Shown: positions 1,573 to 38,392 of the stretch, piece after piece
How the letters are laid out: every line of letters begins with the position of its first letter
How positions within the stretch are numbered: position 1 is the stretch's first letter
Assembly: GCA_025642075.2 (NCBI GenBank)
Contig: JAODUO010000114.1
Span: 887,001-951,000, forward strand
Length of the DNA stretch: 64,000 nucleotides
Direction: 5' to 3'
Origin: Ridgeia piscesae
Lineage: Eukaryota > Annelida > Polychaeta > Sabellida > Siboglinidae
Position numbers and translations under genes: made by a program
The notes under the pieces: generated by a model
The model's input: the letters and a program-made list of their open reading frames with translations, nothing else
Told to the model about the DNA's origin: nothing
Database searches by the model: none

Positions 1573-3490
1573 TTAGATATTGTAGAACAAAGAAACTTGG
1601 AAATGTTGGACGATTTCAACTGTCCTGCTACCGATCAAAAGAGGCGAGAGGGGAGAATATTTCTTTCTCTTAAAATCCACAATCATTTCCTTTGTTTTGT
1701 TTACATTGAACTCCAGATTATTTTCGCTGCACCAACTGATAAGTTTGTTCACCTGATCACGATACTCAGATTCATCAGAGTTGGTAATAAGCCCTAGCAC
1801 TGTAGTATCGTCAGCAGATTTCCGTATTTGGGTACATTCATGACAAGATACGCAAACCTATATGTAAAAAGAGAGTATAACATTGGTGACAGAACACAGC
1901 CATGAGGGGTACCAGTAGATAAAGTAAGTGATGACGAAAGGTTGCCACCTATTTTCACAACCTGCGGTCTGTTCAATAGAAAATCGAGGATCCACAGATA
2001 CACGGACACCGACATCTTCTTAAACAGTTTTGAGGGGATAATTGTATTAAAACCATAGCTATAATCAACAAAAAGGATCCTACCGTAAATATGTGGACTG
2101 TCTAGATGTTGGAGAAGATAAAACAATCCTAGAGAAACAGCGTCGTCAACAGATCTATTTTCACGATGTGCAAACTGAAATTGGTCAAGCAATGGATCGA
2201 TAATTGATTTCAGAAATTGGAGGACCAATCGTTCGAGTGTCTTCATGACTACAGAGGTCAAGGCAATAGGCCTATAATCGTTTAAACAAGAGGCTGTATA
2301 TTTCTTTTGAACAGGAATGATAGTTGACTTTTTGAAGCAATGTGGGATTTTACATTGGGAAAGAGACACACTGAATATATGTCTGTAAAATCACATGAGA
2401 GATGGCCGGCACAATGTTTAAGTACACAAGGAGAGATGTTATCCGGGCCAGCAGCCTTCTTGCTCTTTAGCTGTTGAAACATGCATTTTACGACAAATTC
2501 GTCAACTGTGAAAGGAGGGAGGAGGCAGGAGGGAGGATCGTCACAGTGAAACCCTGTGACAGAGGAAGGGGGAATAGTGTTGTGCTTATCAAAGCGGCTG
2601 TAAAAGTCATCCAGTTTATCACGAATAGTAGTGTCGGTAGTGGTAGTATTCTTGGGCGACGGCTTATAGCCTGCCAGATGTTCTTAGAGTTGTTGGTGGT
2701 GAGATGTTCCTCAAGCTTGTCCCGGTATTTGGCCTTACCGGTCTTAATGGCATTTTCTGCTGCATGTCTCGCTTTCATTTATTTGTCTTTGTCATTGTCT
2801 TTGTACGCATCCTATTTCGCCTGTAGCTTGTGTTTGCAAGTATTAAACCAAGGTTTGTCGTTGGAGTAGCTTGTTATTGTTTTCGTTGGAATACGGAGGC
2901 CCTCGCTGAAGGTGGTGATATCGCTGACTGTCTGTGTGTATTCGTGAATGTCGGTTGCGGCCTCAGTCAGTGCATTCAAATTTCACAGCATCCGCGAAGT
3001 GTCTCCACCGCATTCAATGACCACTGTTTCACAGTTTTCATAGTTGGTTTAACACGCTTCAATTGTTGTTTGTCCGGCCATGCACAAGGTAAACCATGCA
3101 TGGTCCGAGCGGCCGAGTGGTGAGCGATGGGTGGAACGATAGGCTCGGCGCCTTTGATGGTTGTAAAACAGTGGTCAAGAATTCTACCATCCCTAGTTGC
3201 ACCTGCTGTATGAACTTCGGCATCTCTTTTTTTCGGATTGGCTTTCTTGACATCACGCGTCAAGATAACGAACGAGTCTGCCTGCGTGACGATGTCAAAC
3301 AGTTGAATCACAACCGGCACCTGTGTTAGCTTGAGTGGGTATAATATAGGCACTATATACACAATCAGAATTATCCTCCCTGGGCAAGTAAGTATAGAAA
3401 GGCTAACAGATATTTGTTTTCTGTTTGTCAGCAGAGCAGGTTTTTGACAAAATCTTGACATGAGGAACAACAAGAAATCGATGATCAAAG
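1573..3490 (-). mobile_element. Degenerate non-LTR retrotransposon (LINE), CR1/L2/Rex1-like
   Basis: Read on the minus strand, this holds in order: an endonuclease C-terminal remnant (about 3490-2976, ending in VKQWSLNAVETLRGC-like residues), a linker (about 2778-2488), and a reverse transcriptase (2482-1573). Recognisable RT pieces are KKAAGPDNISP, the FVDYSYGFNTIIP block that corresponds to the usual FxDxSxAF motif, GTPHGCVLSPMLYSLFT, and NNLEFNVNKTKEM. The catalytic ADD triplet is at 1815-1807 in a different frame from the segment before it, so at least two frameshifts separate the pieces. The copy cannot encode a working protein. It lies downstream of the adhesion gene and on the same strand. 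The family assignment within CR1/L2/Rex1 is by resemblance only. Confidence 0.88.
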
Positions 3491-20200: not shown

Positions 20201-23200
20201 CAAGATTCGTGGGAATGGGTCCTGTCTAAGCACTATGGTGACTGCCTCTAACACACACACGTTTGCACACAAACCCCCCTCATAGACCCATGCCTAACAC
20301 TACGCAACAACAAACCTGACCAATCAGAGAAGGCGTTATAATCATGTGACCACTCACCATCAGATGTTGTGAATCGGAATCTCTCAGTCCACTCAGTCTG
20401 ACCAAATGCGTTGCGGGCACGCAGCCTCACTACATACGTTGTGTTCTGCTCTAGTTTCTTCAAAACCTTCTCTTCCTCGTACAGTGGCAACGTATACTGT
20501 CCTTTCGAACTTGGAATGGTCGAGTTCTGCCACTTAGACGGACCACTGTTGTTCACCTAGGACAATGCAGGATCAACCAATCAATTTATTCCAAAACACA
20601 CCATGAGAAACACATCAGGTCAAGTAAATAACTACTTAATCATAAATGATGTGGTAAGATATAAAATAATGAAGAAATATGCTTTGAAAAGGACTAACAA
20701 GCTATGTACTGTACTTGGTGAGTGGCATTACAGATTTACAGCATCGCTATTCGTGTAATAACGCTATAACGCGACTCGCTATAACGCGAATTGGCTATAA
20801 CGCGGTCGGTCGTGGACCCCGAATTTCTGCCGCCAGGGGGGAAATGGGCGCTACAGCTAACAATAACGCTGTAATTAACTGTCACTTATTTTTATGAATT
20901 CTTCATGTTTGTCTTGTACAGGCGTATCTAGAAACAATTTAATATTAAGAAATTTAACACAGAAGTACAACTGAGTTCGTTGTTTGTTGTGCCCCTGGCT
21001 TCTGGCTTTGCTCTGCCGTCGGCTTCGCAGCACCAATCCAATCGTTTTTCAAACCGATCTATTGTGTAACCAACGCTTGGTTTGTGTGGTAATTTCTTAA
21101 GTGTTTGTTTAAAACGTTACCAATTCCTTTGATTGCATTTAATTAACTTTAGGCACAGTAAATTTGGTACAAAGTCCTGTTTGTTTGCGCCGATATCAAT
21201 CGCGTTTGTCTCCTGCCAGTTCGCTGTGGCTTTGGCGAAGGCGCCCGTTCGCTGTGGCTTCCGCGAACGAGCGCCTTCGCCGGATTGTAAATGGCAATTA
21301 AATTGCTTACGAATCGGGCGGTGACGAAAAATAATTATGGTACTGAAATGGCAGGCTAAAGTTATGTTATGTTTTCTTCGCTACGTATACGAAAAAATAT
21401 TTACTTGTGCGCAAATATACGAATTCGTCAACTGCGTGTGAACCACAGTAGCCTCGAACCACCGTGAATTGCATTATAAATCGGCACGGTAAATGTGCGA
21501 TCTAAATTTTTATTTTGGGATTGATTAAAAGATGAAATTAATCCAACAGTGAGCGCAATTAGTATAAGTAATTAATCCAACAGTGAGCGCAATTAGTATA
21601 AGTATTAATATCTGACCGACTTTGGCAACATGTCAATTCATTTGTGCGTTTCGGCTGCTGAGTTCAAGGTTATTTTAGACCGCGACCGCGTACTGTGTTA
21701 TCGCTCCGCCTCAGTTCGCATCGCCAGACGAGGCCCGTTGGCTCTGAATTTATTTTAAAACTGTACACCATTCGCAAGATTTACTCAGTTCAACATTCGA
21801 CAGTGTATATTATTTTAACGTAATACACATTTACGTTGGTTTCAATGTCAGTTAGTTTTATAAATCACACATACACCACGCAACCAGCACATTGGCTTCG
21901 GTTGCTGTTGTGGCGTTTTGGGGGTGGTGGCGCCCCTGGCGGAATATAATCTATAACGCGCCTCGTTTACAACGCGGTTCCATTTCGTGGACCCCAACTA
22001 CCGCGTTATAACGAGGCGCGACTGTATATACATTGCAGTCTGGCAGTATTTTCTAGCCATCCAACTGTTTAGCAAATGTTTTTCTAATTGCATAAATGTG
22101 ACAGTTGTCCATGTTGTTTCAGGTGCAAAACCGACATAAATGTGACAGTTGTCCATGTTGTTTCAGGTGCAAAACCGGCATAAATGTGACAGTTGTCCAT
22201 GTTGTTTCAGGTGGAAAACCGACATAAATGTGACAGTTGTCCATGTTGTTTCAGGTGCAAAACCGGCATAAATGTGACAGTTGTCCATGTTGTTTCAGGT
22301 GCAAAACCGGCATAAATGTGACAGTTGTCCATGTTGTTTCAGGTGCAAAACCGACATAAATGTGACAGTTGTCCATGTTGTTTCAGGTGCAAAACCGGCA
22401 TAAATGTGACAGTTGTCCATGTTGTTTCAGGTGCAAAACCGACATAAATGTGACAGTTGTCCATGTTGTTTCAGGTGCAAAACCGGCATAAATGTGACAG
22501 TTGTCCATGTTGTTTCAGGTGCAAAACCTGCATAAATGTGACAGTTGTCCATGTTGTTTCAGGTGCAAAACCGGCATAAATGCTTTATAACTGGAAACAT
22601 GATTGGACTAACACTTCAATTTGCACTAGTACGTGTTGTGGCACTTGATATGGCAACATAAGTGATGACCGTGTCACTGCATATGGCGGGAGACTGCCGC
22701 AATTACATCAAATCTCCTGATCTCCCATGCAGGAGAACCAATCTACCGTATTTTTAACGAAACCTGTTTGTGTGAGTCTCCCGGTACTGTGCGTCATTGT
22801 GCAACATTTTGTAATGAATCCAAAACAAATTTTACCTAATAAAATTTTGGGAAGTATAAGTGCCTCCACACAGGACATGGGAATGAAGATGCACAATATG
22901 CAATGGGTGGTACTGTACTATCATCATCATGCTGTTGGTCGCATTGCGACAAAGACTGCTTCCATCACTTGACTATTGCTCTCCATTTATCTCTCTGCTG
23001 TGAGAGTGATGTCCATGAGTCAGTCTTTATGTCTCTCAGCTCCAGGTTTCTCTCGATGGTATCCTTGAACCGGACACGAGGCTGTCCTCTCTTTCTGTGA
23101 CCAGAATACAGTTAGGAGCAGAGAATCTGCTTTGGTAGCCTGTCTGGTGACATCCTCATGAGGTGTCCAGTCCACCGGAAATTCTTTCTGATAAGAAGAT

Positions 23201-26200
23201 CTTCCATAGATGGCAGCCCTGTCCGTTCGAGTATGTCATGAAGGCATGCAGCTTTTTCACCTGTCGTCTGTAAACTGTCCAGGCCTCGGCTCCATATAGG
23301 AGGGTGGACAGCACGATTGCACTGTATATCTTGCCTTTAACCCGCATGGACACATGGTGGTTGTTCCAGAGTCTCTGGCATAGTCGGCCGAAAGATGCAC
23401 TAGCCTTGGCCATCCTCCTCTGTATTTCATCGTCAATGCATCCATTACTTGATATAGTGCTTCTGAGGTAGGTGAATTCCAGAACAGAGTTCAGCTTGTT
23501 TCCATCAACCATGATATCCTCCTCTCGGGTTCTTGTAGAGTTGGGTTGGTACAGCACCTCGGTCTTCTTGATGTTAATCTTCAGGTCAAACTTCTTTGAC
23601 GCATCGGAGAAAGCATCCACTATTTTCTGCATCTCTTCAGCAGAGTGGGCAACCAGTGCACTGTCATCTGTGAAAAGCAGCTCTCTCATCAGTATCCGAG
23701 TAGTCTTGGTCTTCGCTCTGAAGTGTGTGACATTGAATAGGCCAGTGCTCTGTCTGGACTGTATGTAGACGCCATCCCCCATGTCTCGGAAAGCCTCGTC
23801 GAGCATTGCTGTTAGGAAGATGGAGAAGAGCGTGGGGGCCAGTATACAACCTTGCTTGTAGTGTTCACTGAATGATTCAGAGACTTCCCCTCCACCACTA
23901 ACATTTGCCATCATTCCGGTGTGTAGAGCCTCGATCATTGTTGTGAACTTCTCTGGGCAGCCTGACTTCCTCAGTAGCTGCCATAGCCCGGTCCTCCCAA
24001 CTGTAGCGAACGCCTTACTGAAGTCGACAAATACCATGTACAGTGGTCGGTCCTGCACAATGCATTTTTCTTGTAGCTGTCGGAGACAAAATATCATATC
24101 CACGGTGCTCCGGTTTCCTCTGAAGCCACATTGTTTCTCCGGAATTACCTCTGGTGTTATGTGGGTAGATAGTCTGTTGAGGATGATCCAGGCGAAGATC
24201 TTGCCTGCTATGGAAAGAAGAGAGATTTCTCTATAGTTCCCACAGTCTGTTCGATCACCTTTCTTGTCGATGGTTAGTTGGTTATAATGCTGGCATCCTT
24301 CCATGCTTGTGGTACAAAACCCACCTCTCAGGCATTGGTGATTAGTTGGTGCAGTCAGCTGAACAGATTGTCTGCTCCGTGGTTCCATACTTCTGCAGGA
24401 ATTCCATCTTCTCCAGGTGCTTTGCCATCTTTCAGGCCGGCGATTGCTCTAGCCATCACATCCATGGTTGGAATCTCATCGAGGCTTGTCTTGATAATGC
24501 ACTGCGGGATGTTGTCCAGAACTTCGTGATTTATGTCGCCAGGGACTTTGAGTAGTTTCTGAAAGTGTTCACTCCATCTTGCCACAACTCTCTTGCTCTC
24601 AGAGAAGGTCTCCATTCCATCTGTTGATTTCAGATGAACAGGTCCCTTCTTCTTGGGTCCCCTCAATTCCTTCAGTCCATTGTAGAAGCCCTTCATGTCG
24701 TTTCTGTCAGCAGCTCTCTGCAGCTCCACTGCCTTCCTTTCCCACCAGACTGACTTCAGTGCACGGGTGAGTTTTTGTAGCAGTCTGCAGGCATCTTTGT
24801 ATGCTGCAGTGGTGGATCTAGTGCTCCTGGTTTGCAACACTCTCTGGTGGGCTTGGTCTTCTGCTCATAAGAGTCTGTAGCTCCGGGTCATTGGGGTTGA
24901 ACCAGGCGTGGTGTTTTCTGTCTGGCGTGCCAAGATATTTTTTGGCTGTGTTGTATACGACCTGCTGCAGAGCAGCCCATTGCTCGTCTGGTGTTGAGCT
25001 TTCCTTCTCCTCCCAGTGGGCGAGAGCATTGTCCATCCCCTACTCAAAACTCTCCCTGTGGCTGATGGTGCAGTGTTGAGCTTGGTCGGCTTACTTGCCT
25101 GTTTTGCTTTTGTCTAAACTGTACTAAATACTACCGTAAAGGAAAAGGACTTAAGGTTAACTATTAATGCTGATATGAAGGTATCAGAGCAGTGTGGAAT
25201 TACAGCAGTGAAGGGAAACACAATTCTTGGATTAATTAGGCGAAATATATATAATGTACAAGGAAACAGAACCACTTTACAAAACAATAGTTACGCTTCG
25301 TTTAGAATATGGTATACAAGCATGGAGGTCAAATCGCAAGAATGATATTGATATGCTAGAAAGAGTACAAAGGAGAGTAACCAAAATGATACCAAAACTC
25401 AGATTGAGAGATCAGATACTGTTTAAAATATTGAATGGGTATAAAAATATTGACAGAAATATTTTGTTCTTGGTTAAGGGAGAGAAGAACCAGGACATGG
25501 AGTTACACTAACAAAGAAGCAGTGTAGACTTGACATTAGAAAATTCTAATTTTCATAAAGAAACACTGAGTCTTTTGAGATAATATTTCACCACACACTT
25601 AGATAAGAGATTTTAAATGCTGCTAAGATGAGTTATTTTAAGGGGTCCACAACCGTTCAATGTTGTGATCATTACAGTATAGAATCACAACTAAAATCAG
25701 TTAATTCAGAGAATAAATTTGGTGGACACTCCTGCTTTATAGTGCTACGTGCCCTGGCCCTAACAATGCCAGTTCTGACATCAAACACTGCCCAATTGGC
25801 CTACCCACCTCTTTCATCATGAAGCGGTAATCGATGATGGGGGACACGGAGACGACATGCCATTTGAGGGTGTACTGGTCACTGTACTTGCCTGTCCTCT
25901 TACTTACGATGGCCAGACTGTGAGGAAGGGCTGAAAGTAAGCACACATATTGTCACAAATGCCTAAATTGTTCAATATTTTCCAAATGACAAACAGACAA
26001 TATTGCATTCTACTGGTGTCGGAACAAAGTCATCGTTCTGTTATCCTCCCTGTTACTGGGTCCTTTGTACCTGTTGCGATAGAAATAAATATAATTATTG
26101 AGTAACAGTTTTATAAATTCTTAGAAGTTGTAACTCAAATGAAAATATTCTTAAAAACAACAAAATACACATTCTCATTCACACCTAAATGCAGTCACTA

Positions 26201-29200
26201 TTAAAACAGAACTGCACAACAATAAATGGAAACAAGAAGTTCTAACTATTAAAGGGTCTACGAAGAGTGGCTTAACAAATGCACACACTATAATAATATT
26301 TATTTTATATAATACATATAGATGGTTTTTTTACAAATTTAAATAATAAATCAATAAAACAAGATAAGACTGTTGTGTAAACATCATAAAAGAATTACAG
26401 TGGTACTTTAAGTAATGTTTTTTTCAGTTTACTTTATAAGAATATTAATAAATTAGAATAAAAATGTTTCTGCAGCCATTCAGTCAGTGTAAGCCATACT
26501 AAACAGGCATGTTCTAAAGCTGAGCTAAGTCAATTATAAGTTCCAGGAGCTTTTAAATCACAGCACACGTACCTGACAAAACAACGTCCTCAAACGCTGT
26601 GCCCCGGTCGTTGCCACCATCACAGCGATACTCCCCCAGGTCCATCGGCTGCAGATTACTGATTTCTAGAGTCTCGCGGTTGCCGTCCTTGGCAGGCAAC
26701 TTGCCCATATGAATGTTCTGTCGCTGGTCAAAGTCGATATCAGTGCCATTGTGTGTCCAGATGACGTTGACCGGAGGGTTCGCATCGAAGATGCACTCAA
26801 TTGACACTTTGTGGCCAGGACCAGTGTAGATGGTTGATTGTTCGACATGCACCGTCGGGGGATCTGAAAGTTGGGAACTTTGTGGAACAGTACCTCAAAG
26901 TTGTGTCTTCTTTGTATATAATTTATTTGCATGGGAATCTGGTACATTGCAATGATGGTATCTAGCAGACCTAAAATAAAATCACAAAAGTTTGGCTTCT
27001 AAAACTATGCGGTTACTAAGTCATGTATGCATTTGGACACCTAAAATTAGTAAAAATTATGTCTGAAAATGTATTGTACAAAAGAATAATTTTTGTACAT
27101 TTTTAAGGTGTCCACAACATCCATCGCCTAAATATATTAATGTCATTATGATGCCCTTAACGTAGTTGTATTTAGGAGACCACACAAAGAAAGGTGATCT
27201 TCAACATTTTGTGCACACATTTAATCACTGTCATGTAGGTGGTGCCACCATTGCATCCACATTTCCACATAATTCCACCAGACAGCGCCACCAATAAATC
27301 ATCGTCTTGGCACCAGTGCTCAGTTAACATGTTTGTATGTATTTTTGAACAGACAAAAGTGTGTGACAGAAACTGTGAACTATGTTTGAACCATTATCGA
27401 TTGTTAACTTCAGCAGTGGCAATGTGTGAACTAAACTGAGTGTTGGTGTCTAAGAGGACTTTGAAAAATAATCTGAGTGCAATGACACAAAGATAACGGA
27501 AAGGGAATTAAAACATTTATTGCTTGAATCAATATTATAATACATGCTGCTATATAGCACAAAGCCAAAAAAAATATAAAAAAAATCAATGAATTAGAAA
27601 TTTTACATTTTGTGCTATGCCTATGAACTTTTTCGAATATGCATGTTTTTACCGCGCTCTCTGGATGCACAGTTGCGATGTCAGACAGGACACATACTGT
27701 CATCAGAGCATGTTTACAAGGATAACTTTTGGGTCGCAACCAGTGTCAAAATTAATTATTGTGCGATACAAAAACTGGTCATCATAGAGAACATATGTGT
27801 ATTTTGATTCCGCACAAATTAATCAAATTTTGTTGAAAAATTGAAGCCAGATGTGGAGGTCTGTCTTAGCTTTGAGATCGCTGTCGTTGTCAGCTTGTTT
27901 TCAAAGTAACTGTATCAATTGCAGCCCCGTGACATAATCCACATCAGGACACATACATTACAAACAGTATGTATTTAACATCAGAAATAAACATTGTGTA
28001 ATCCATAAAAAATCATTAGTATGCTGATATGTGAAGGAGGAGTTGTATATTTAACATAACACTTTAAATCCAGGAGTAAAATTCCAATTGTTATCATTGT
28101 TCAATTGGTTGAAGTGTTTGCATTAAAGGGTATGTAGCATCAAAGACATTTTTTTGGGGAATATGTCCAGTCCTTGTAGTTGTTCCCCAATCTACCAATA
28201 TAATTTGCCATAGCATCTGTTATCTAATTGAAAATAGATAAATTAAATCAAAAATCGCAACTTTCCACGGAAATCCCCGAGGTCGCTCCGGAAACACCCG
28301 ATATACCCTGTGACGTAGAACATTCCGTTAATCCACAAAGCCATCCACATGTCGCCGTTAATCCACCATGATGTCCGATCTGTCTGAACCTTCGGACGAT
28401 TGCACTATTCAATCTGACGAGGAACAGTCACAAGGAGAGTTCGTCACCCACACTGGTGTACAGTGTTATCAGTATGAGCTCAAGAAGAAATATTCTGACG
28501 GAAATGAGCCGAAATCGTCGGCGACTGCTAGCGGCAGCGGGCTTGTTGATCAACGCAACCGAGTTGAAAACACGGTTTGGTTAGTTCAGTTATACACATC
28601 TGTTCTATTCTAAGCGTCTTTAAAATGGTTAACAAAGATCATTCATATATCTAGCATATAATGATCACTCTTTGTGTTGTAAATACGTGACAGAAAAGAA
28701 CTGTTTACCGGGCGATAATAAGTTACCGTAGCGGCGACTCGCAACTTGACAGCTACTGAGCTAGGGCTAGGCTACCGCGTATAGCTTTCGGATTAAAGTC
28801 AGCGATTGACAGATGTGATGTAATAGTTTTTTGTTCTGTTGTCATCATGTTGTGGTGTTTTAATCAGATTGGCATAACTATGATTAAACCTATTGATATA
28901 AACGTTCAAAATTAAAATCCGAGACGACCTTCACATGTAACACAAATTTATGACAGCATCCAGGATTGCCTAAATTCATGGGTGCTGGATGTTGCTTACT
29001 TGCAGTATCGCCACCAGTATAACATTTTATTTGCCTAGCTTAACCATTAGTAACATGAAATAGTCATGATATAGATATGATACATAACCCTAATCTAAAT
29101 AACACAGTACATGTTGCAAGAAATGTTACACATTAACATTTTATTGACAGTAACATTTATTTTTTCAGAATCTACCTGCATACAGTAAAATAGACAACTG

Positions 29201-32200: not shown

Positions 32201-35200
32201 CCATAATAACACGTCATTGCCCTGCAAATTAACTTTCAGCTTTCTGCGGGGATCGCTATGCTGATGGGTTTAAAACTGAATTTATGTATTTTTATTTATT
32301 TTTTGAATGTTGTCAAATTTTACATACAGATTTAATCTTTACGTATACATGACAAACACATTTTAGGTAATGCTTATTTCTATTCCATTTAAAGACAATC
32401 TCTAGTGTTATGTTTAATTACGTTATTTATTAAACCAAAAAATTATTATATACAAACATCTTTGAGTAGTATTATATTAGGTTTATTTAAATCGTCACCA
32501 GGCATAATATTAACTCTGCAATTAATGTATGCCCTAGCATTAATTTACAAGGTTCTTGAGATAGGAACATTCAATTAACTGTGAGATACAATTACACATG
32601 CTGTTTGTGTCAATATTGTTGACATTCCTCACTGCCCCAAGACAACCATGTAGTTCTGCGGTGTGAATGTTAATTGCTGACCCAGTAAATTACTTGCAAA
32701 TTATAAAATGTTATGCTCAAAGACAATTCTTTTGACCAACCAAACAAATGTAAGTCTTTCATAAAATATTCTTCAGATACAAACCCACACACGAACAATA
32801 CATAAACCCATTAAGGAGGCAGCTATAAGTAGTTTGAGATGTCACATGACACGGGGGGACTGGAAGGTCTACGTACAGTTGACTTTGATGCGGATGGTTC
32901 TGGAGACAGGGGAACCGGCACCATTGCTTGCGGTGCACGTGTAGACGCCAGCATCCTCCTTCTGGATGTTGTTGAGGACAAATCGACCTCCCTCAACATC
33001 CATCATGTCATCTTCCATCCCACCCTGCAACAACATCACAATCACATCCTGCAACAACTTCTCCATCCCACCCTGCAACAACATCACAATCACATCCTGC
33101 AACAACTTCTCCATACCACCCTGCAACATCACCGTCAGATCCTGCAACAATTTCTTCACCCCACCCTGCAACAACATCACCATCACATCCTGTAACAACT
33201 TCTCCATGCCACCCTGCAACATCACCATCACATCCTGCAACAATTTCTCCACCCCACCCTGCAACAACATCACCATCACATCCTGCAACAACTTCTCCAT
33301 GCCACCCTGCAACAACATCCCTATCACATCCTGCAACAACATCACCATCACATCCTGCAACAACTTCTCCATCACACCATGCAAAAACACCACCATACAT
33401 AATACCCATTCAACAACATATCCATCAAACCATGCAACAACAACACCACACATAATACCCATTCAACAACATATCCATCAAACCATGCAACAACAACACC
33501 ACACATAATACCCATTCAACAACATATCCACACCTTGCAACAACACCACCACACATAATACCCATTCAACAACATATCCATCAAACCATGCAACAACACC
33601 ACCACACATAATACCCATTCAACAACATATCCATCACACCATGCAACAACACCACCACACATAATACCCATTCAACAACATATCCATCACACCTTGCAAC
33701 AACACCACCACACATAATACCCATTCAACAACATATCCATCAAACCATGCAACAACACCACCACACATAATACCCATTCAACAACATATCCATCAAACCA
33801 TGCAACAACACCACCACACATAATACCCATTCAACAACATATCCATCACACCATGCAACAACACCACACATAATACCCATTCAACAACATATCCATCACA
33901 CCTTGCAACAACACCACCACACATAATACCCATTCAACAACATATCCATCACACCATGCAACAACATCACCACACATAATACCCATTCAACAACATATCC
34001 ATCAAACCATGCAACAACACCACCACACATAATACCCATTCAACAACATATGCATCAAACCATGCAACAACACCACCACACATAATACCCATTCAACAAC
34101 ATATCAATCACACCTTGCAACAACACCACCACACATAATACCCATTCAACAACATATCCATCAAACCATGCAACACCACCACACATAATACCCATTCAAC
34201 AACATATCCATCACACTATGCAACAACTTCCATCAAACTATCGCATCCTCCTCCATCATGCACTGCAACAACACCATTATCCTTTCAACAACATGTCTAT
34301 CACACAATGCGACAATATGTGACGTGTTCTAACAAAATGAGTCGTATGTCAAAAAGTAAAATAAGTTGAGTTAGTCACACCATTGGAAAGAAGATAATTA
34401 TATTAAGCTTTCCAACAGTGTAAAAATTATGGACCTATCACGCACACAGCCAATGGTATTGGACGCTGAACATGCCTGGGGTAGAAAGTTTCAAACGAAG
34501 AAAAACACACTTGAAGTTCGCAGTCACGTAAGCACAGTAAGCCTTAGTAAGCACACGGTCAAGTACATTGTCAATCCAAAATCGGCCGTTTTGCTTCTAT
34601 TACTCCATGTAATGCTTTCAAAATAAACTCCCAAGTCATATTCATTATCAAAGATAATATATCATGCTGTTTACTGAAATTATTACAAAATAATCAGAGT
34701 ATTTAGTAATGTTTTCTAGCAGTGACCCAATCGATCACGCTTGTTTATAGTTCGCACTGCGCCTGCATGCACAGCTCTAAGCCAATCAGGGGCTCGCAAC
34801 CAGCCCGCCCCACGTCCAGTGACATTTGTTTACAGATAGGTCTCTCGCAAAAGTGGAGCTATTGGCTAAAGTTGACGTCAGTGGGATTCCTGCTATAAGA
34901 ATCCGAAAGAGGGCTTTCAGGGCTTTCACGTAGTACCAAATACGTTGAGGAAACCCCAAAGAATGCGAGGCTATAAAAAGGCTATAAAATGAAGAATACA
35001 TTGGTGACAATAAGTCAAAATCATCGGAAATCATCATTGCATGTTTATGCGGTGTTTTCTCGAAATCCAGTTCGCTGACATGACTCATTATGTTAGAACA
35101 CGTCACATATCATCCGTACCACTCTGCACCAACAACATCCTCCATCACACCTCACAACAACATATCCCACCATCACACCCTTCAACAACATCTTCCATCA

Positions 35201-38200
35201 GTCTTTACACCTCGCAACATCCTTCATCACATGTCACAACAACATATTCCATCACACCCTTCAACAACATATCCCCTTTACACCTCGCAACATCCTTCAT
35301 CACATGTCACAACAACATATCACATCGCACCCTTCAACAACATCTTCCATCAGTTTTTACACCTCGCAACATCCTTCATCACACCTCACAACATATCCCA
35401 TCACACCCTTCAACAACGTATCCCACCACAGTCTTTACACCTCGCAACATCTTTCATCACACCTCACAACAACATATCCCATCACACCCTTCAACAACAT
35501 CTTCCATTAAAGTCTTTACACCTCGCAACATCCTCCATCACACCTCACAACAACATATCCCATCACACCCTTCAACAACATCTTCCATTAAAGTCTTTAC
35601 ACCTCGCAACATCCTTCATCACATGTCACAACAACATATCACATCGCACCCTTCAACAACATCTTCCATAACAGTCTTTACACATCGCAACATCCTTCAT
35701 CACACCTCACAACAACATATCCCATCACACCCTTCAACAACATCTTCCATCAGTCTTTACACCTCGCAACATCCTTCATCACACCTCACAACAACATATC
35801 CCATCACACCCTTCAACAACATATCCCATCACAGTCTTTACAACTCGCAACATCCTTCATCACATCTCACAACATCTTCCATTACATCCTGCACACACAA
35901 AACACAAATACACTGATAATTTTAGGTATTCCAGGATAAGAATTTTGCCAAAACTAGTGGGGAGCAGCCGAGCATGTACTTTCCAAAATCTAGGGACCCA
36001 CTGCAAAAACTGAGGGTCAACAGAGAGAGCATTTCAGCAAAATTTCTGTTGTTTGTCTGTACCAAATGTTGTTAGTACATAAAATATAGACAACTCTGAC
36101 TTTAGCCGAGTTGACCAGTGCCACTGACCATGGTGTCGCTGGGCAGTGACCACAAGATGTCCGGCTCAGGCTTGCCATGGGCGTCACACTGTAGGGTAAT
36201 CGTCTCCCCTATGTCCATGTCTATCTCATCCAAGTCTGGGATTAGGTCAACAGATGGTGGAACTGCAAGGGTTAACATTTATTTGATGTTATTATTGTGA
36301 CAACATCGCGATAGCCGCAAGATTACCTCCTGCAACCAAGTCACAAACAGAACAAGGTGGTCTTTGTCAAATTTTACTTTCTGCAAGGTTTTATGTAGAA
36401 AAAACTTGCCAGTAATACATTTTTTGGGTGTGAACTCCTAAACACACAAGCCAGTTGAAATGTGTTTATGACCTGAAATAAGCTACAAACACATGTGACA
36501 TCCATTTTCATTGCATAACTGACAATATCTATGATTTTTAAAGATCTTTTTTGCACCTTCATTTTGCACCCATCCACCCCCTAGCCAGTGATATTTCTAG
36601 CAGTCCAAATTTCAATTCATATAACCCAAATCATGAAAAACAGATCTCTATTTTTGTTGCTGGTTTCTAATATACATTTACACACCTGCAAAGTTTCTAA
36701 GTTGTATGCCCTATACCCTTGGAGACATGACCATGTTTGTATTGGCTAAAACTACGATTCATGTTGTTGCAACTATGTGACATCAACAAGCAGTGCAAGA
36801 GTCCTGATTTATTTCCGAGTAGCAACTACCTAGGTAGACCTATATACGAGTACTGAAAATAAGCATCAGTTGCTATTGGGTATCATGTTTTCATGTTTTC
36901 ATTTGCCTTGCAAATGTGAGCCAGAATAATAAACAAAACATTGACATGAAGGTACCACAGTTCCTCTTCTAATCGTCCAACTTAAAACTATGCCAGATTT
37001 GGATTAAATATTCACACTTTTATGAGCTCCTGAAAATTGTACGTTAGCTCATCACAACAACTCTAATAAGTTACACAATTTTAGATCTCCACAGAAATTA
37101 GAAAAAATCAAAGTTCACTGTTGAGGATATCATATTTTTCTACATATTTTATAAATAAAAAACGAGTCAGTTCTAAAATGGTGTGATGAAAAGCTGTGTT
37201 CATATGACATGGAATTAATCTAGTGTATTATTTCTTAACTACGTCTAGGGGGTGACAAAGAAAGCTTTCCTGTTCATGTTGGACTACGATGCCTAATAAC
37301 AACACTCACTAGTTACTGTCAACATGTTCTTCTGCTGAATGGTCCCGTCTGCGCCGGGAATCTGGCATGTGTATGAACCCTCATCGCTCAGTTTCACTTG
37401 GTTAATGACGAGGTCATATACGTTCCCTGTGCCCCCTACCAAGATGCGACCTCCGTCATTATTGAAGACATTCCGTGCCATTGCCATCACATTCGACCCG
37501 TTTTGCCAAAAGACGACTTGCGTATCTCCTGAAACAATGTGGTGGTTGGACGAAAAGGAATACATAAATAAATAATAAATAAATATACTTACATAGCACC
37601 AAATCTAGTTCACACTAGTGAAGATGCTTTAAATATAAAACAATACTGAATAACATAATTAGTTGAGAAAAAAACTAAGATAAATAGATAAATAAAATAA
37701 ATGTTACCTTGAAATAAAAATGCATAAACACAGTAATCACAAAATTTGTTATCCTCTTAATAGTTACAGTAGACATTTTCTTAGTTAAACTATTGATTGA
37801 AATGTAAACACTCAGTGAATTAAATTTTTGATAAAAATATTATGATAATATATGCTGGTTTCTAGTCCCCGCATATATATCCGCATATATATTTCTCTCA
37901 GTTCTATAAAAGATGGTCATTAGAAAAAAGGCAATTCAATGTATTGATTTAAATATTGCAATGTGACAATTTTCAAAATTGTGCATTTTTATCAAAGTTT
38001 TGTGCTGTTGAACTGATTACCCCCGTCTTAGACTCCTTTAGTCAATGGGTGATTATTGGTCTGTTGTATCCAGTTAACTCAATCTCTTGCTTTTAAAACC
38101 GAGGACTACATAATCAATTGCAAGCAGTTATTGAATTGTCAAAGTTCAATACATCGAAGGACACTTTAATACATTGACTAATGAGCCAGCTTTACATCCT

Positions 38201-38392
38201 ACGTAGAAATCTGCTATGCTAAACTGAGGCTTAGCGATGGAAATTGCAAAATTTCAATATTCCAAAAATGAACTGGACCAAGCCAGAATTGGAAAGTAAA
38301 CCAACCTAGATTTGCCACTTCACACCGGATGGTCGCTGAATCACCCAAGAGAACTGTGATCTCCTGATTCCCGGACAAGAAGCTGTACGCAT
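14168..38392 (-). CDS. Klingon/lachesin-like cell-adhesion protein (3 Ig + FN3 + GPI tail), 5' partial
   Basis: Eight coding exons on the minus strand join into 428 codons without a frame break: 38392-38306, 37528-37310, 36262-36129, 33024-32877, 26863-26573, 25930-25809, 20556-20358 and 14253-14168. All have AG acceptors and GT donors. Domains in order are Ig1 (about residues 5-105, Cys in IRCEV and YTCQI), Ig2 (106-196, Cys in LQCDA and YTCTA), Ig3 (197-293, Cys in IECIF and YRCDG), FN3 (about 294-400) and a hydrophobic C-terminal tail ending at a stop. NxS/T sites occur in Ig1, Ig3 and FN3. Three Ig domains, one FN3 and a GPI signal match Drosophila Klingon; lachesin and IgLONs lack the FN3. 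Such proteins mediate homophilic adhesion of neurons at the cell surface. The signal-peptide exon and promoter were not found, so the 5' end is missing. Introns hold many repeats. Orthology to klingon itself is inferred from architecture. Confidence 0.88.
15844..16254. repeat. GGTGA/GGTAG pentamer array
   Basis: About 410 bases of variants of TAGGGTGAGGTGAGG on the plus strand, with TTAGGG-like and AAGGGTGAGG interruptions. Strongly strand-asymmetric (G-rich on plus, C-rich on minus). The TSPYL/LTSP-like open frames on the minus strand are by-products. Confidence 0.96.
16370..16776. repeat. 45-bp minisatellite, about 9 copies
   Basis: The unit is CATGTGAACATGTTTGTGGC, ATTACTTGTAAACAGTCAGC, AGGGT. 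Copies are nearly identical except for one unit shortened by 4 bases (near 16710) and a G/A change. Since 45 is a multiple of three, both strands show long open frames that are not genes. Confidence 0.97.
18867..18881 (+). promoter_or_regulatory. CTCF-like motif
   Basis: AACACTAGGGGGCAG resembles the CTCF core (consensus CCACTAGGGGGCAG) apart from the first bases. It lies in a locally GC-rich stretch of intron 7. A similar CACCAGGGGGCAA occurs at 63197. Motif evidence only. Confidence 0.25.
19145..19158. promoter_or_regulatory. RFX X-box palindrome
   Basis: GTTACCATAGCAAC fits the X-box GTNRCC-RGYAAC bound by RFX factors. Half-site relatives lie nearby: GCCATAGCAAC at about 19026-19036, GTCACCATAGCATC at about 19106, and GTTGCTATG near 20143, 20165 and 20186. 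RFX sites often mark ciliary and sensory-neuron genes. Confidence 0.35.
20358..20556 (-). CDS. Adhesion gene exon 7: FN3, second half
   Basis: Acceptor GCATTGTCCTAG, 199 bases, donor GTGAGT. It begins VNNSGPSKWQNST and carries the FN3 signature KKLEQNTTYVVRLRARNAFG then TEWTERFRFTTSD. Three NxS/T sites are present (NNS, NST, NTT). It starts in phase 0 and ends in phase 1 after one base of a glycine codon that is completed by exon 8. Confidence 0.93.
21234..21281. repeat. 19-bp stem hairpin, GC-rich
   Basis: GGCGAAGGCGCCCGTTCGC at 21234-21252 pairs with GCGAACGAGCGCCTTCGCC at 21263-21281 with one mismatch and a 10-base loop. It sits in the middle of the Tigger-like element. Confidence 0.85.
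21537..21604. repeat. Direct duplication
   Basis: AATTAATCCAACAGTGAGCG followed by CAATTAGTATAAGT occurs twice in succession. Confidence 0.9.
22091..22582. repeat. 44-bp minisatellite, about 11 copies
   Basis: The unit is CATAAATGTGACAGTTGTCC, ATGTTGTTTCAGGTGCAAAA, CCGG. Two sub-types (CCGG and CCGA ends) partly alternate. Each copy contains TTGTTTCAGGTG, which looks like a splice acceptor on the plus strand, antisense to the host gene. Confidence 0.97.
22916..25085 (-). mobile_element. LINE fragment with near-complete reverse transcriptase
   Basis: On the minus strand, pieces run from a linker region (25047-24818, HAWFNPNDPELQTL-like) through a pre-RT region (24840-24355, WWERKAVELQRAADRNDM..) to an RT of 410 codons (24388-23156). 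RT motifs seen are KGDRTDCGNYREISLLS, FVDFSKAF, KQGCILAPTLFSIFL, and FTDDSALVAHS with the catalytic DD at 23668-23663. The C-terminal part continues in broken frame to about 22990. The element ends in a GATGAT-type tail near 22920. At least two frameshifts and a 5' truncation make it inactive. It resembles the LINE family widespread in molluscs and corals often mis-annotated as craniofacial development protein. It lies in intron 6, sense to the host gene. Confidence 0.9.
25100..25650 (+). mobile_element. LINE fragment, RT C-terminal part
   Basis: On the plus strand, EKDLRLTINADMKVSEQCGI and following residues (about 25142-25255) precede LYKTIVTLRLEYGIQAWRSN and MLERVQRRVTKMIPKLR (25254-25511). 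These are the conserved C-terminal blocks of CR1-like reverse transcriptases. The blocks are in different frames and a deletion removes the usual middle of the second block. It abuts the minus-strand LINE 5' end to 5' end and belongs to another family. Confidence 0.85.
25809..25930 (-). CDS. Adhesion gene exon 6: FN3, first half
   Basis: Acceptor TTACTTTCAG, 122 bases, donor GTGGGT. It encodes ALPHSLAIVSKRTGKYSDQY followed by LKWHVVSVSPIIDYRFMMKE, which gives the core tryptophan and the C strand of a fibronectin type III domain. It starts in phase 1 and ends in phase 0, matching exon 7. Confidence 0.9.
25931..26572 (-). other. Intron 5
   Basis: 642 bases, AT-rich, with no recognised element. 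Confidence 0.7.
26573..26863 (-). CDS. Adhesion gene exon 5: Ig3
   Basis: Acceptor CCAACTTTCAG, 291 bases, donor GTACGT. A single exon encodes all of Ig3, opening PPTVHVEQSTIYTGPG after the joined tyrosine (KVNY), with IECIF, the core tryptophan in VIWTHNG, and EYRCDGGNDRG. NGT is a probable glycosylation site. The NYPPTV junction is typical of the linker between Ig2 and Ig3 in lachesin-like proteins. Phase 1 at both ends. Confidence 0.94.
28368..28613 (+). pseudogene. P2X7-ballast-like protein, N-terminal exon remnant
   Basis: The frame starts MMSDLSEPSDDCTIQSDEEQ, an acidic disordered start, then VQCYQYELKKKYSDGNE, which resembles the (I/V)QPYQYEP block that precedes the cysteine-rich domain in invertebrate P2X7-like proteins. 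It then reaches NRVENTVW, like the RxGNxxW that leads into the zinc-binding CxC region, and diverges. The cysteine-rich middle was not found. It may have been coded by a lost exon. Function of this family is unsettled; in vertebrate P2X7 the domain is a cytoplasmic zinc- and nucleotide-binding module. Confidence 0.55.
29169..29329 (+). pseudogene. P2X7-ballast-like protein, last exon remnant (copy 1)
   Basis: After a TTATTTTTTCAG acceptor come NLPAYS and, after a one-base frame change, NRQLVRWCWGVVGHDNRLPL followed by PSCVINKI and SPDGEYTGFKWPT before a stop at 29327. The YRQ-x-VRW, LPSCVxxxI and PDGxYTGF blocks are the signature C terminus of this family. The frameshift makes it non-functional as read. 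Confidence 0.7.
29180..29465. repeat. Direct duplicate of 30241-30500 (3' end of the ballast-like gene)
   Basis: About 280 bases match 30241-30500 with scattered substitutions and small indels, including coding end and downstream GCCAACATAGAAATCTACTT and TTTCCATA(T/A)TGACCATTT. Confidence 0.88.
30241..30369 (+). pseudogene. P2X7-ballast-like protein, last exon remnant (copy 2)
   Basis: A second copy of the same region: LVRWCYGIVELGNRLPLPSC, then in another frame VVNKIRKTFPSPDGQYTGFK and a stop at 30367. It lacks a base relative to copy 1. The similarity with copy 1 continues past the stop to about 30500 (with 29465), so the whole 3' end of the gene was duplicated inside the element. Confidence 0.7.
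31757..31835 (-). repeat. tRNA-like (SINE-type) sequence in the right palindrome arm
   Basis: On the minus strand GTCCCCGTAGCTCAGTTGG opens like a tRNA with an A-box TAGCTCAGTTGGTA (31828-31815) and has a B-box GGTTCAAACC (31769-31760). The 3' end does not close the acceptor stem, so it is not a working tRNA gene. The left arm has the partner: a worn A-box side near 28095-28110 and an intact B-box at 31333-31342, separated by the 3.18-kb insertion. Confidence 0.7.
32877..33024 (-). CDS. Adhesion gene exon 4: Ig2, second half
   Basis: 148 bases, donor GTACGT. It encodes GGMEDDMMDVEGGRFVLNNI and KEDAGVYTCTASNGAGSP, with the second Ig2 cysteine, and ends in KVN. The acceptor is TGATGTTGTTGCAG at 33025. 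The same acceptor-like sequence recurs many times upstream because a 48-bp tandem repeat includes it, and the frame stays open through that repeat to 33462. The 33024 start is preferred because it gives an Ig2 domain of normal length. It starts in phase 0 and ends in phase 1. Confidence 0.87.
33025..33375. repeat. 48-bp minisatellite containing the exon 4 splice acceptor
   Basis: On the minus strand the unit is GGTGGGATGGAGAAG-TTGTTGCAG-GATGTGATTGTGATG-TTGTTGCAG, 48 bases with some of 45. The last TTGTTGCAG is the acceptor of exon 4, and the first 12 bases of the exon (GGTGGGATGGAA) are nearly the start of the unit. About seven units lie upstream. All unit lengths are multiples of three, and the minus-strand frame of exon 4 is open through the array to 33462. 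Confidence 0.93.
33376..34230. repeat. 50-53-bp minisatellite, about 16 copies
   Basis: The plus-strand unit is CACCACACATAATACCCATT, CAACAACATATCCATCAAAC, CATGCAACAA. Variants have CACACCTTGCAACAA or CACACCATGCAACAA. The CATGCAACAA end resembles the CCTGCAACAA of the neighbouring 48-bp array. Confidence 0.96.
35119..35895. repeat. About 78-bp minisatellite with internal sub-repeats
   Basis: The plus-strand unit is built from ACACCTCGCAACATCCTTCA, TCACACCTCACAACAACATA and TCCCATCACACCCTTCAACA plus ACATCTTCCATCAGTCTTT, with 26-base sub-repeats ending in CAACA. About 9-10 units; some lack one sub-repeat. The long plus-strand open frames are by-products of its lack of G and stop codons. Confidence 0.94.
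36129..36262 (-). CDS. Adhesion gene exon 3: Ig2, first half
   Basis: Acceptor AACCCTTGCAG, 134 bases, donor GTCAGT. It opens with PPSVDLIPDLDEIDMGET, gives LQCDAHGKPEPDILW with the first cysteine and core tryptophan of Ig2, and ends after SDTM in phase 0. This phase-0 intron splits the Ig2 domain in the middle and matches the phase of exon 4. An alternative donor GTCAAC ten bases later would shift the frame against exon 4. Confidence 0.88.
36263..37309 (-). other. Intron 2
   Basis: 1047 bases, AT-rich. No exon, RNA gene or element recognised. Confidence 0.7.
37310..37528 (-). CDS. Adhesion gene exon 2: Ig1, second half
   Basis: Acceptor CATTGTTTCAG, 219 bases, strong donor GTGAGT. It encodes from DTQVVFWQNGSNVMA to the strand GSYTCQIPGADGT with the second Ig1 cysteine and the DEGSYTC signature. 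NGS is a probable N-glycosylation site. Phase 1 at both ends; the joined codon at the start is glycine, and at the end isoleucine. Confidence 0.93.
37529..38305 (-). other. Intron 1
   Basis: 777 bases, AT-rich, with no recognised element or exon. Confidence 0.7.
38306..38392 (-). CDS. Adhesion gene exon 1 of those found: Ig1, first half
   Basis: Acceptor TTACGTTTCAG, 87 bases, donor GTTGGT after CTAG. It encodes the start of Ig1: a strand with QEITVLLGDSATIRCEVANL, giving the first cysteine. It starts and ends in phase 1, as is usual for Ig-domain borders. Since it opens with an acceptor, at least one more exon carrying the signal peptide must lie upstream at higher coordinates. The donor is weaker than the consensus, but the phase and the domain continuity with the next exon support it over the alternative GTTTAC four bases later. 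Confidence 0.85.
   Translation of the reverse strand: MRTASCPGIRRSQFSWVIQRPSGVKWQI

What the first reader, a model, noticed from the sequence alone, without database searches (positions are those of the whole stretch)
33008..33462. A minisatellite has multiplied a splice acceptor and kept the Ig reading frame
The acceptor of exon 4 (TGTTGTTGCAG then GGTGGGATGGA) is itself the repeat unit of a 48-bp array lying directly upstream in the intron. Every unit brings one or two further TTGTTGCAG sites, all unit lengths (48 or 45) are multiples of three, and the frame is open through the array. If an upstream site is chosen, in-frame 16-residue blocks (GGMEKLLQDVIVMLLQ-like) would be added to the middle of Ig2. 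Either the frame is kept by chance from the ancestral unit, or this is a graded source of Ig2 length isoforms. Copy number could vary among individuals.
Basis: partly seen in the sequence, partly recalled or inferred. Interest (0 to 1): 0.8.

Follow-up and report, generated by a model that had tools for sequence, protein, structure and literature searches.

The report
Splice acceptor multiplied by a minisatellite
A short piece of DNA holding the end of an intron and the first bases of the next exon has been copied many times in tandem in an animal cell-adhesion gene, and the same has happened at other genes of this genome, so the extra splice sites look like a recurrent by-product of DNA copying errors rather than a device made for this one protein.

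Summary
On the minus strand an array at 33014-33388 runs 11 nt into exon 4 of an Ig-superfamily gene. Fourteen CAG sites lie upstream of the likely acceptor (33024), all in frame, all additions stop-free.

The frame argument does not hold. A shuffled 48-mer is open in a given frame 34% of the time, 4 of 6 frames are stop-free, and substitutions show no significant coding constraint. Acceptor 33024 gives the best Ig2 fit.

In the same genome (siboglinid-like annelid, inferred) I tabulated ten more arrays ending at or near an exon acceptor, among them ALIX, DM-domain, ZO-1-like, ELMO-like and F-box exons. Of the 11, two have a period divisible by three; outside the Ig gene 3 of 311 upstream sites are in frame and stop-free.

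Best reading: a "mirage" minisatellite, the kind known from amphioxus: tandem duplication across a 3' splice site. The exon-proximal copy is probably used; the open frame here is chance. Ig2 length isoforms stay possible but unsupported; no RNA or second individual was available.

The parts
33014..33388 (-). 48/45-bp minisatellite; each half-unit ends in CAG; overlaps the first 11 nt of exon 4
32877..33024 (-). exon 4, second half of Ig2 (GGMEDDMMDVEGGRFVLNNIQKEDAGVYTC...), acceptor CAG just upstream of 33024, donor GTACGT
   Evidence: phase and translation; Ig fit
33025..33072 (-). unit nearest the exon; its upstream acceptor (33072) is identical to 33024 for 42 nt upstream and 11 nt downstream
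33389..34227 (-). 53-bp array in the same intron (TRF span 33358-34227), related to the 48-bp unit; TTGTTGCAT in place of TTGTTGCAG, no CAG, 5 AG in 839 nt
35133..35874 (-). 81/162-bp array in the same intron, distantly related to the 48-bp unit, no CAG
36129..36262 (-). exon 3, first half of Ig2, ends phase 0 (...PSDTM) before GTCAGT (inferred donor)
37310..37528 (-). exon 2, second half of Ig1
38306..38392 (-). exon 1 as found here (first half of Ig1; the true first exon was not sought)
26573..26863 (-). exon 5, Ig3
20358..20556 (-). downstream exon, FN3-like second half (23.4 bits, below the Pfam cut-off of 25); the exon before it was not found

Best explanation
A tandem duplication that spanned the 3' splice site of intron 3 (last ~13+ nt of intron plus the first 11 nt of exon 4) was amplified by slippage or unequal exchange into a minisatellite. 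The last copy keeps the exon intact, so the upstream copies lie in the intron and are probably ignored or used only rarely; the spliceosome probably uses the exon-proximal copy at 33024. The in-frame, stop-free character of the 14 extra sites is an accident of a unit whose length is a multiple of three and whose composition has few stops. It works like the 'mirage' minisatellites of amphioxus and recurs at other genes of this genome. Shown: anatomy, recurrence at other exons, no excess of frame-keeping periods. Inferred: the origin by duplication across the acceptor in this gene, and which copy is spliced.
For: Array overlaps exon by 11 nt. 33024 is phase-compatible with exon 3 and gives the best Ig2 fit: Pfam Ig_3 57.4 bits, against 54.9 (+8 aa), 53.4 (+16), 51.1 (+32), 48.7 (+110), 52.5 (-11). 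Searching the genome with the array gave 8 other contigs; the 3 whose arrays hold TTGTTGCAG units all end at an open exon: ALIX, DM domain, one without database match. Of the 10 TTGTTGCAG arrays in the listing, 7 are followed by an open exon-like frame, 4 of them with homology: F-box, ELMO, ZO-1, WD40. 9 of 11 tabulated arrays share 9-29 nt of exon start with the unit. In ALIX the ungapped match to the solved protein runs across the junction made by the last copy, and 0 of 41 upstream TTGCAG sites are in frame and stop-free. Published RT-PCR on amphioxus mirages reports regular splicing (PMC3087553, passages).
Against: No RNA was seen. Sites 33072 and 33024 have identical sequence over -42 to +11, so local sequence cannot tell them apart and some upstream use would be expected if the first AG after the branch point wins. 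The crude acceptor score puts 33024 only 9th among AG sites of the stretch scored. Exon status rests on homology for 4 of the 7; counting only these, 4 of 10 against 1 of 8 control arrays is not significant (P 0.31), whereas 7 of 10 against 1 of 8 gives P 0.025. TTTTGCAG arrays gave only 2 clear exons of 11, and one backward-motif control array also abuts an Ig exon. At two of the 11 loci (F-box, WD40) the exon-side identity is 1 nt. For the Ig gene itself no close orthologue was found, so its ancestral exon start is not known.
Confidence: 0.72

Rival explanations
1. Graded isoform source: upstream acceptors are used in a regulated or at least regular way and add 16-residue (or 8-residue) blocks to Ig2, with length tuned by repeat copy number; the frame has been kept by selection.
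For: 14 of 14 upstream sites in frame and stop-free, unlike the other ten arrays (3 of 311); 33072 identical to 33024 locally; IFI6 shows that a minisatellite of splice donors can feed three in-frame mRNAs (passage in PMC4526556); synonymous changes 4 of 11 against 18% expected, in the right direction but P 0.13.
Against: Open frame expected for about one array in nine (0.34/3), so at least one of 11 is expected with P 0.74. The added blocks are hydrophobic (56% VILMF) and lower the Ig2 score step by step. Two of three minus frames are open.
Confidence: 0.1
2. Leaky use: a few percent of transcripts take upstream A-type sites by noise; tolerated because they are in frame, with no function.
For: Identical local sequence of 33072 and 33024; splicing noise is general (established knowledge; PMC10809524 passages report much unannotated splice-site use).
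Against: Untested; published mirages were reported not to disturb splicing (PMC3087553, PMC3902484 passages). Compatible with the best explanation rather than opposed to it.
Confidence: 0.35
3. A generic intronic minisatellite happened to spread up to exon 4 and overwrote its start; the acceptor was not the seed.
For: The intron holds two further related arrays that lack CAG, 63% of intron 3 being array; related TTGTTG-rich arrays exist away from exons (C5, C9; part).
Against: At ZO-1-like and ALIX exons the shared bases encode conserved residues, so there the exon was copied into the repeat; arrays with this motif end at exon-like frames in 7 of 10 listed cases.
Confidence: 0.15
4. The first acceptor of the array (33354) is the real one and the whole array is exon, adding about 110 residues.
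For: Frame open from 33354 to exon 4; an AG-poor stretch lies upstream.
Against: Lowest Ig2 score of the six versions tested, domain split in two; 33354 is a weakly scoring site.
Confidence: 0.04

Closest known systems
'Mirage' minisatellites of amphioxus (Adh3, globins BflGb6 and BflGb9; also reported for TnC and PGBD5)
   Same: Minisatellite-like tandem duplications spanning an intron-exon boundary, units 10-72 bp in Adh3, copies holding splice signals (passages of PMC3087553; passage of PMC3902484).
   Different: Another phylum (annelid-like, inferred); here all extra acceptors keep the frame; allele and somatic instability and RT-PCR are known there, not here. The 2002 Adh paper itself was seen only as a reference.
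Minisatellite of splice donors in human IFI6 (6-16/G1P3)
   Same: Tandem copies of a splice site give in-frame alternatives (passage of PMC4526556; the 1995 paper is not held).
   Different: Donor, not acceptor; alternative use is documented there, not here.
Variable internal tandem repeats at exon-intron boundaries of human genes in segmental duplications
   Same: Minisatellites (mean unit 30 bp) at boundaries alter gene structure (passages of PMC2812944).
   Different: There linked to novel introns and repeats kept or spliced out; human, recent paralogues.
Dual-specific splice sites in tandem repeats (UBC)
   Same: A ladder of splice sites in tandem repeats (passages of PMC10809524).
   Different: Coding repeats with AGGT used as donor and acceptor; the units here carry CAG followed by GG or GA, not AGGT (sequence).

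Membership tests
mirage minisatellite | tandem repeat of minisatellite unit length | tested here: met
   48/45-bp units, 7.9 copies
mirage minisatellite | unit spans an intron-exon boundary and array abuts that boundary | tested here: met
   array reaches 11 nt into inferred exon 4
mirage minisatellite | copies carry splice signals | tested here: met
   15 CAG sites
mirage minisatellite | regular splicing is not disturbed | not testable with these tools
   no RNA; only indirect support from ALIX
mirage minisatellite | allelic or somatic length instability | not testable with these tools
   one assembly only
IFI6-type splice-site minisatellite | unit carries a splice donor | tested here: not met
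   unit carries an acceptor
IFI6-type splice-site minisatellite | extra sites used to give in-frame isoforms | not testable with these tools
   no RNA
dual-specific splice-site repeat | AGGT in each unit | tested here: not met
   half-units listed read CAG followed by GG or GA

The most novel reading that the evidence does not exclude
Mirage minisatellites are a genome-wide feature of this annelid-like genome, seeded again and again at 3' splice sites, notably those reading TTGTTGCAG, so that scores of genes carry hypermutable rows of acceptors; in the rare in-frame case, such as this Ig gene, repeat copy number sets a series of Ig2 lengths that differ between individuals or even between cells.
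Probability: 0.12. Interest if true: 0.8.

Novelty: new member of a known kind. Interest (0 to 1): 0.5.

Why it matters
It shows that multiplied splice acceptors, described as a curiosity of amphioxus, occur at several conserved genes in a distant animal genome. That gives a natural set of competing identical acceptors (up to ~90 copies at one exon), some frame-breaking and some not, with which one can ask how the spliceosome picks one of many equal sites and whether such arrays seed new introns or isoforms. For the Ig gene it replaces an adaptive reading by a testable neutral one.

Tried and rejected
Selection for frame: rejected as unsupported. Conservation of TTGTTGCAG among copies as a sign of function: not used, since the 53-bp units keep TTGTTGCAT equally without CAG. 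Close orthologues of the Ig gene: 7 distant proteins, none of 25 candidates for the Ig2 region. The repeat in viral and prokaryote contigs: 0 matches each. Identity of the C1300 gene: no Pfam or PDB match. CLPTM1 for the C46 exon is recalled only; Pfam and PDB did not support it. NCBIfam gave nothing for four exons. Donor-type arrays: AGGTGAGT triples 5834 against 4269 backward, but their exon edges could not be read. Literature: ten searches; mirages outside amphioxus were not seen in the listings, which is no proof of absence.

Full report
The window. It is animal DNA with a gene on the minus strand. I placed six exons by splice signals and reading frame: 38392-38306, 37528-37310, 36262-36129, 33024-32877, 26863-26573 and 20556-20358. 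The joined product of the first five has three Ig domains by Pfam; the last exon looks like half of an FN3 domain but scores below the Pfam cut-off. The best protein match is a Tribolium protein named MDGA2, 28% identical; the best solved structure is MDGA1. That 3 Ig + FN3 recalls Drosophila klingon and wrapper is from memory. The window lies in an assembly of 628 Mb in 4875 contigs. A reverse-transcriptase frame in the window has two named matches to Ridgeia piscesae, 67% and 79% identical, among the 120 of 1032 hits listed, most of them unnamed. I infer a siboglinid or related annelid.

The array. Confirmed at 33014-33388. Fifteen CAG sites, 14 of them upstream of 33024, all in frame, all additions stop-free. 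The array overlaps exon 4 by 11 nt. The rest of intron 3 also holds arrays, 53 bp and 81 bp, that align to the 48-bp unit better than any of 300 resampled controls; the three arrays make up 63% of the 3104-nt intron. The 53- and 81-bp arrays hold no CAG.

Which acceptor. Exon 3 ends in phase 0 before GTCAGT and 33024 starts in phase 0. Ig_3 scores are 57.4 bits for 33024, 54.9, 53.4 and 51.1 for additions of 8, 16 and 32 residues, 48.7 for 110, and 52.5 for a site 33 nt further down. The differences are modest. A crude acceptor score built on recalled frequencies gives 33024 and 33072 the same value, +2.87; other A-half sites lie between -0.54 and 1.46, B-half sites between -4.54 and -2.54, and the five other inferred acceptors of the gene between -2.75 and 3.56. 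Eight AG sites of the stretch scored as high or higher, so the score does not settle it.

Is the frame meaningful? In the array body 4 of 6 frames are stop-free. Of 5000 shuffled 48-mers, 34% are open in a given frame and 76% in at least one of three. Among 8 A and 6 B copies there are 11 changes, 4 synonymous; expected share 18%, one-sided P 0.13. The 21-nt halves lack one TTG, a three-base unit of its own. Nothing here asks for selection.

Other loci. A DNA search with the array gave 25 matches, 4 on the window's own contig and the rest on 8 others. Of the 8 loci fetched, 3 have arrays with TTGTTGCAG units and all 3 end in an exon-like frame: ALIX (Pfam 1e-21; PDB), a DM domain, and one that ends in a GTAAGT donor but matched nothing. 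The other 5 have different units; one of them holds a single TTGTTGCAG.

Pattern search. Triples of TTGTTGCAG spaced 8-38 nt gave 2151 matches against 594 for the pattern read backwards; matches are many per array. The listing shows only the first places, by contig number, and contains 10 arrays. After the last copy, 7 have an open exon-like frame: F-box, ZO-1-like, ELMO-like, WD40 (Pfam below cut-off; PDB), and three without database support (C35, C36, C46). One is unclear (C42), two show none (C5, C9). TTTTGCAG triples: 203 against 72; of 11 listed arrays 2 are clearly followed by an exon (NDUFA8; a coiled-coil-like frame with a GTCAGT donor), C266 and C186 are unclear, the end of C693 was not reached, repeats run on at C183 and C218, the other four show nothing evident. 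Control: of 8 backward-motif arrays, 15 edges read, one abuts an Ig exon; at 3 of the 15 edges the repeat still partly continues where the fetched piece ends. Seven of 10 against 1 of 8 gives P 0.025; with homology-backed exons only, 4 of 10 against 1 of 8, P 0.31.

Class table. For 11 arrays (Ig, ALIX, DM, C1300, F-box, ZO, C35, C36, C46, ELMO, WD40) spacings are 24/48, 23, 25, 33, 35, 44, 38, 43, 46, 32 and 31; two are divisible by three. In-frame and stop-free upstream TTGCAG sites: Ig 13 of 13; the other ten together 3 of 311 (2 of 93 at C1300, 1 of 21 at F-box, 0 elsewhere). The longest exon-side identity is 9-29 nt in nine and 1 nt in two (F-box, WD40). In the DM case the exon holds the start codon, so upstream copies may lie in the 5' UTR and frame may not matter there. 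In ALIX the exon joined by its last copy matches the human protein without a gap, while the copy before it is identical for 131 nt upstream and 9 nt downstream. If ALIX works, splicing must mostly take the last copy. This is the main argument for the exon-proximal site in the Ig gene, and it is indirect.

What is known. [quoted passage not shown] PMC3902484, passage). The Ig array meets the anatomical features of that kind. IFI6 is the donor counterpart in man (PMC4526556, passage). Boundary repeats in human segmental duplications (PMC2812944, passages) and UBC (PMC10809524, passages) are further relatives.

Verdict. Real, multiplied acceptor; most likely a mirage minisatellite whose frame is open by chance. 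What is of interest is its recurrence in this genome, not the Ig isoforms.

Noticed in passing
window 22090-22582: 44-bp array whose + strand unit holds CATGTTGTTTCAGGTGC, acceptor-like, but no open frame follows its end.
   Followed up: partly
window 23156-24448, minus strand: Reverse-transcriptase frame of 430 aa inside the Ig gene, with matches of up to 90% identity in unnamed records and two named Ridgeia piscesae matches.
   Followed up: partly
window 1794-2683, minus strand: Further reverse-transcriptase-like open frames in the ORF list, judged by eye only.
   Followed up: no
window 33389-34227: The 53-bp array has 5 AG in 839 nt against about 51 expected from base composition; one unit copied many times, so perhaps chance.
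   Followed up: partly
L013 (C779): The array at the DM-domain exon copies the likely start codon, so upstream copies carry ATGs.
   Followed up: no
L015 (C1300): Array of about 105 copies of 33 bp (3.4 kb) ending at an exon-like frame with a GTAAGT donor; no database match.
   Followed up: partly
L012 (C554): A 54-bp array begins within a few tens of bases after the end of the same ALIX exon.
   Followed up: no
L076 (C4): A control array chosen for a backward motif also abuts an Ig-domain exon.
   Followed up: partly
genome contig C40, 157324-157726: Donor-motif array whose opposite strand reads TACTTCAAG followed by GTGAGATC, a possible donor mirage; its edge could not be read.
   Followed up: no
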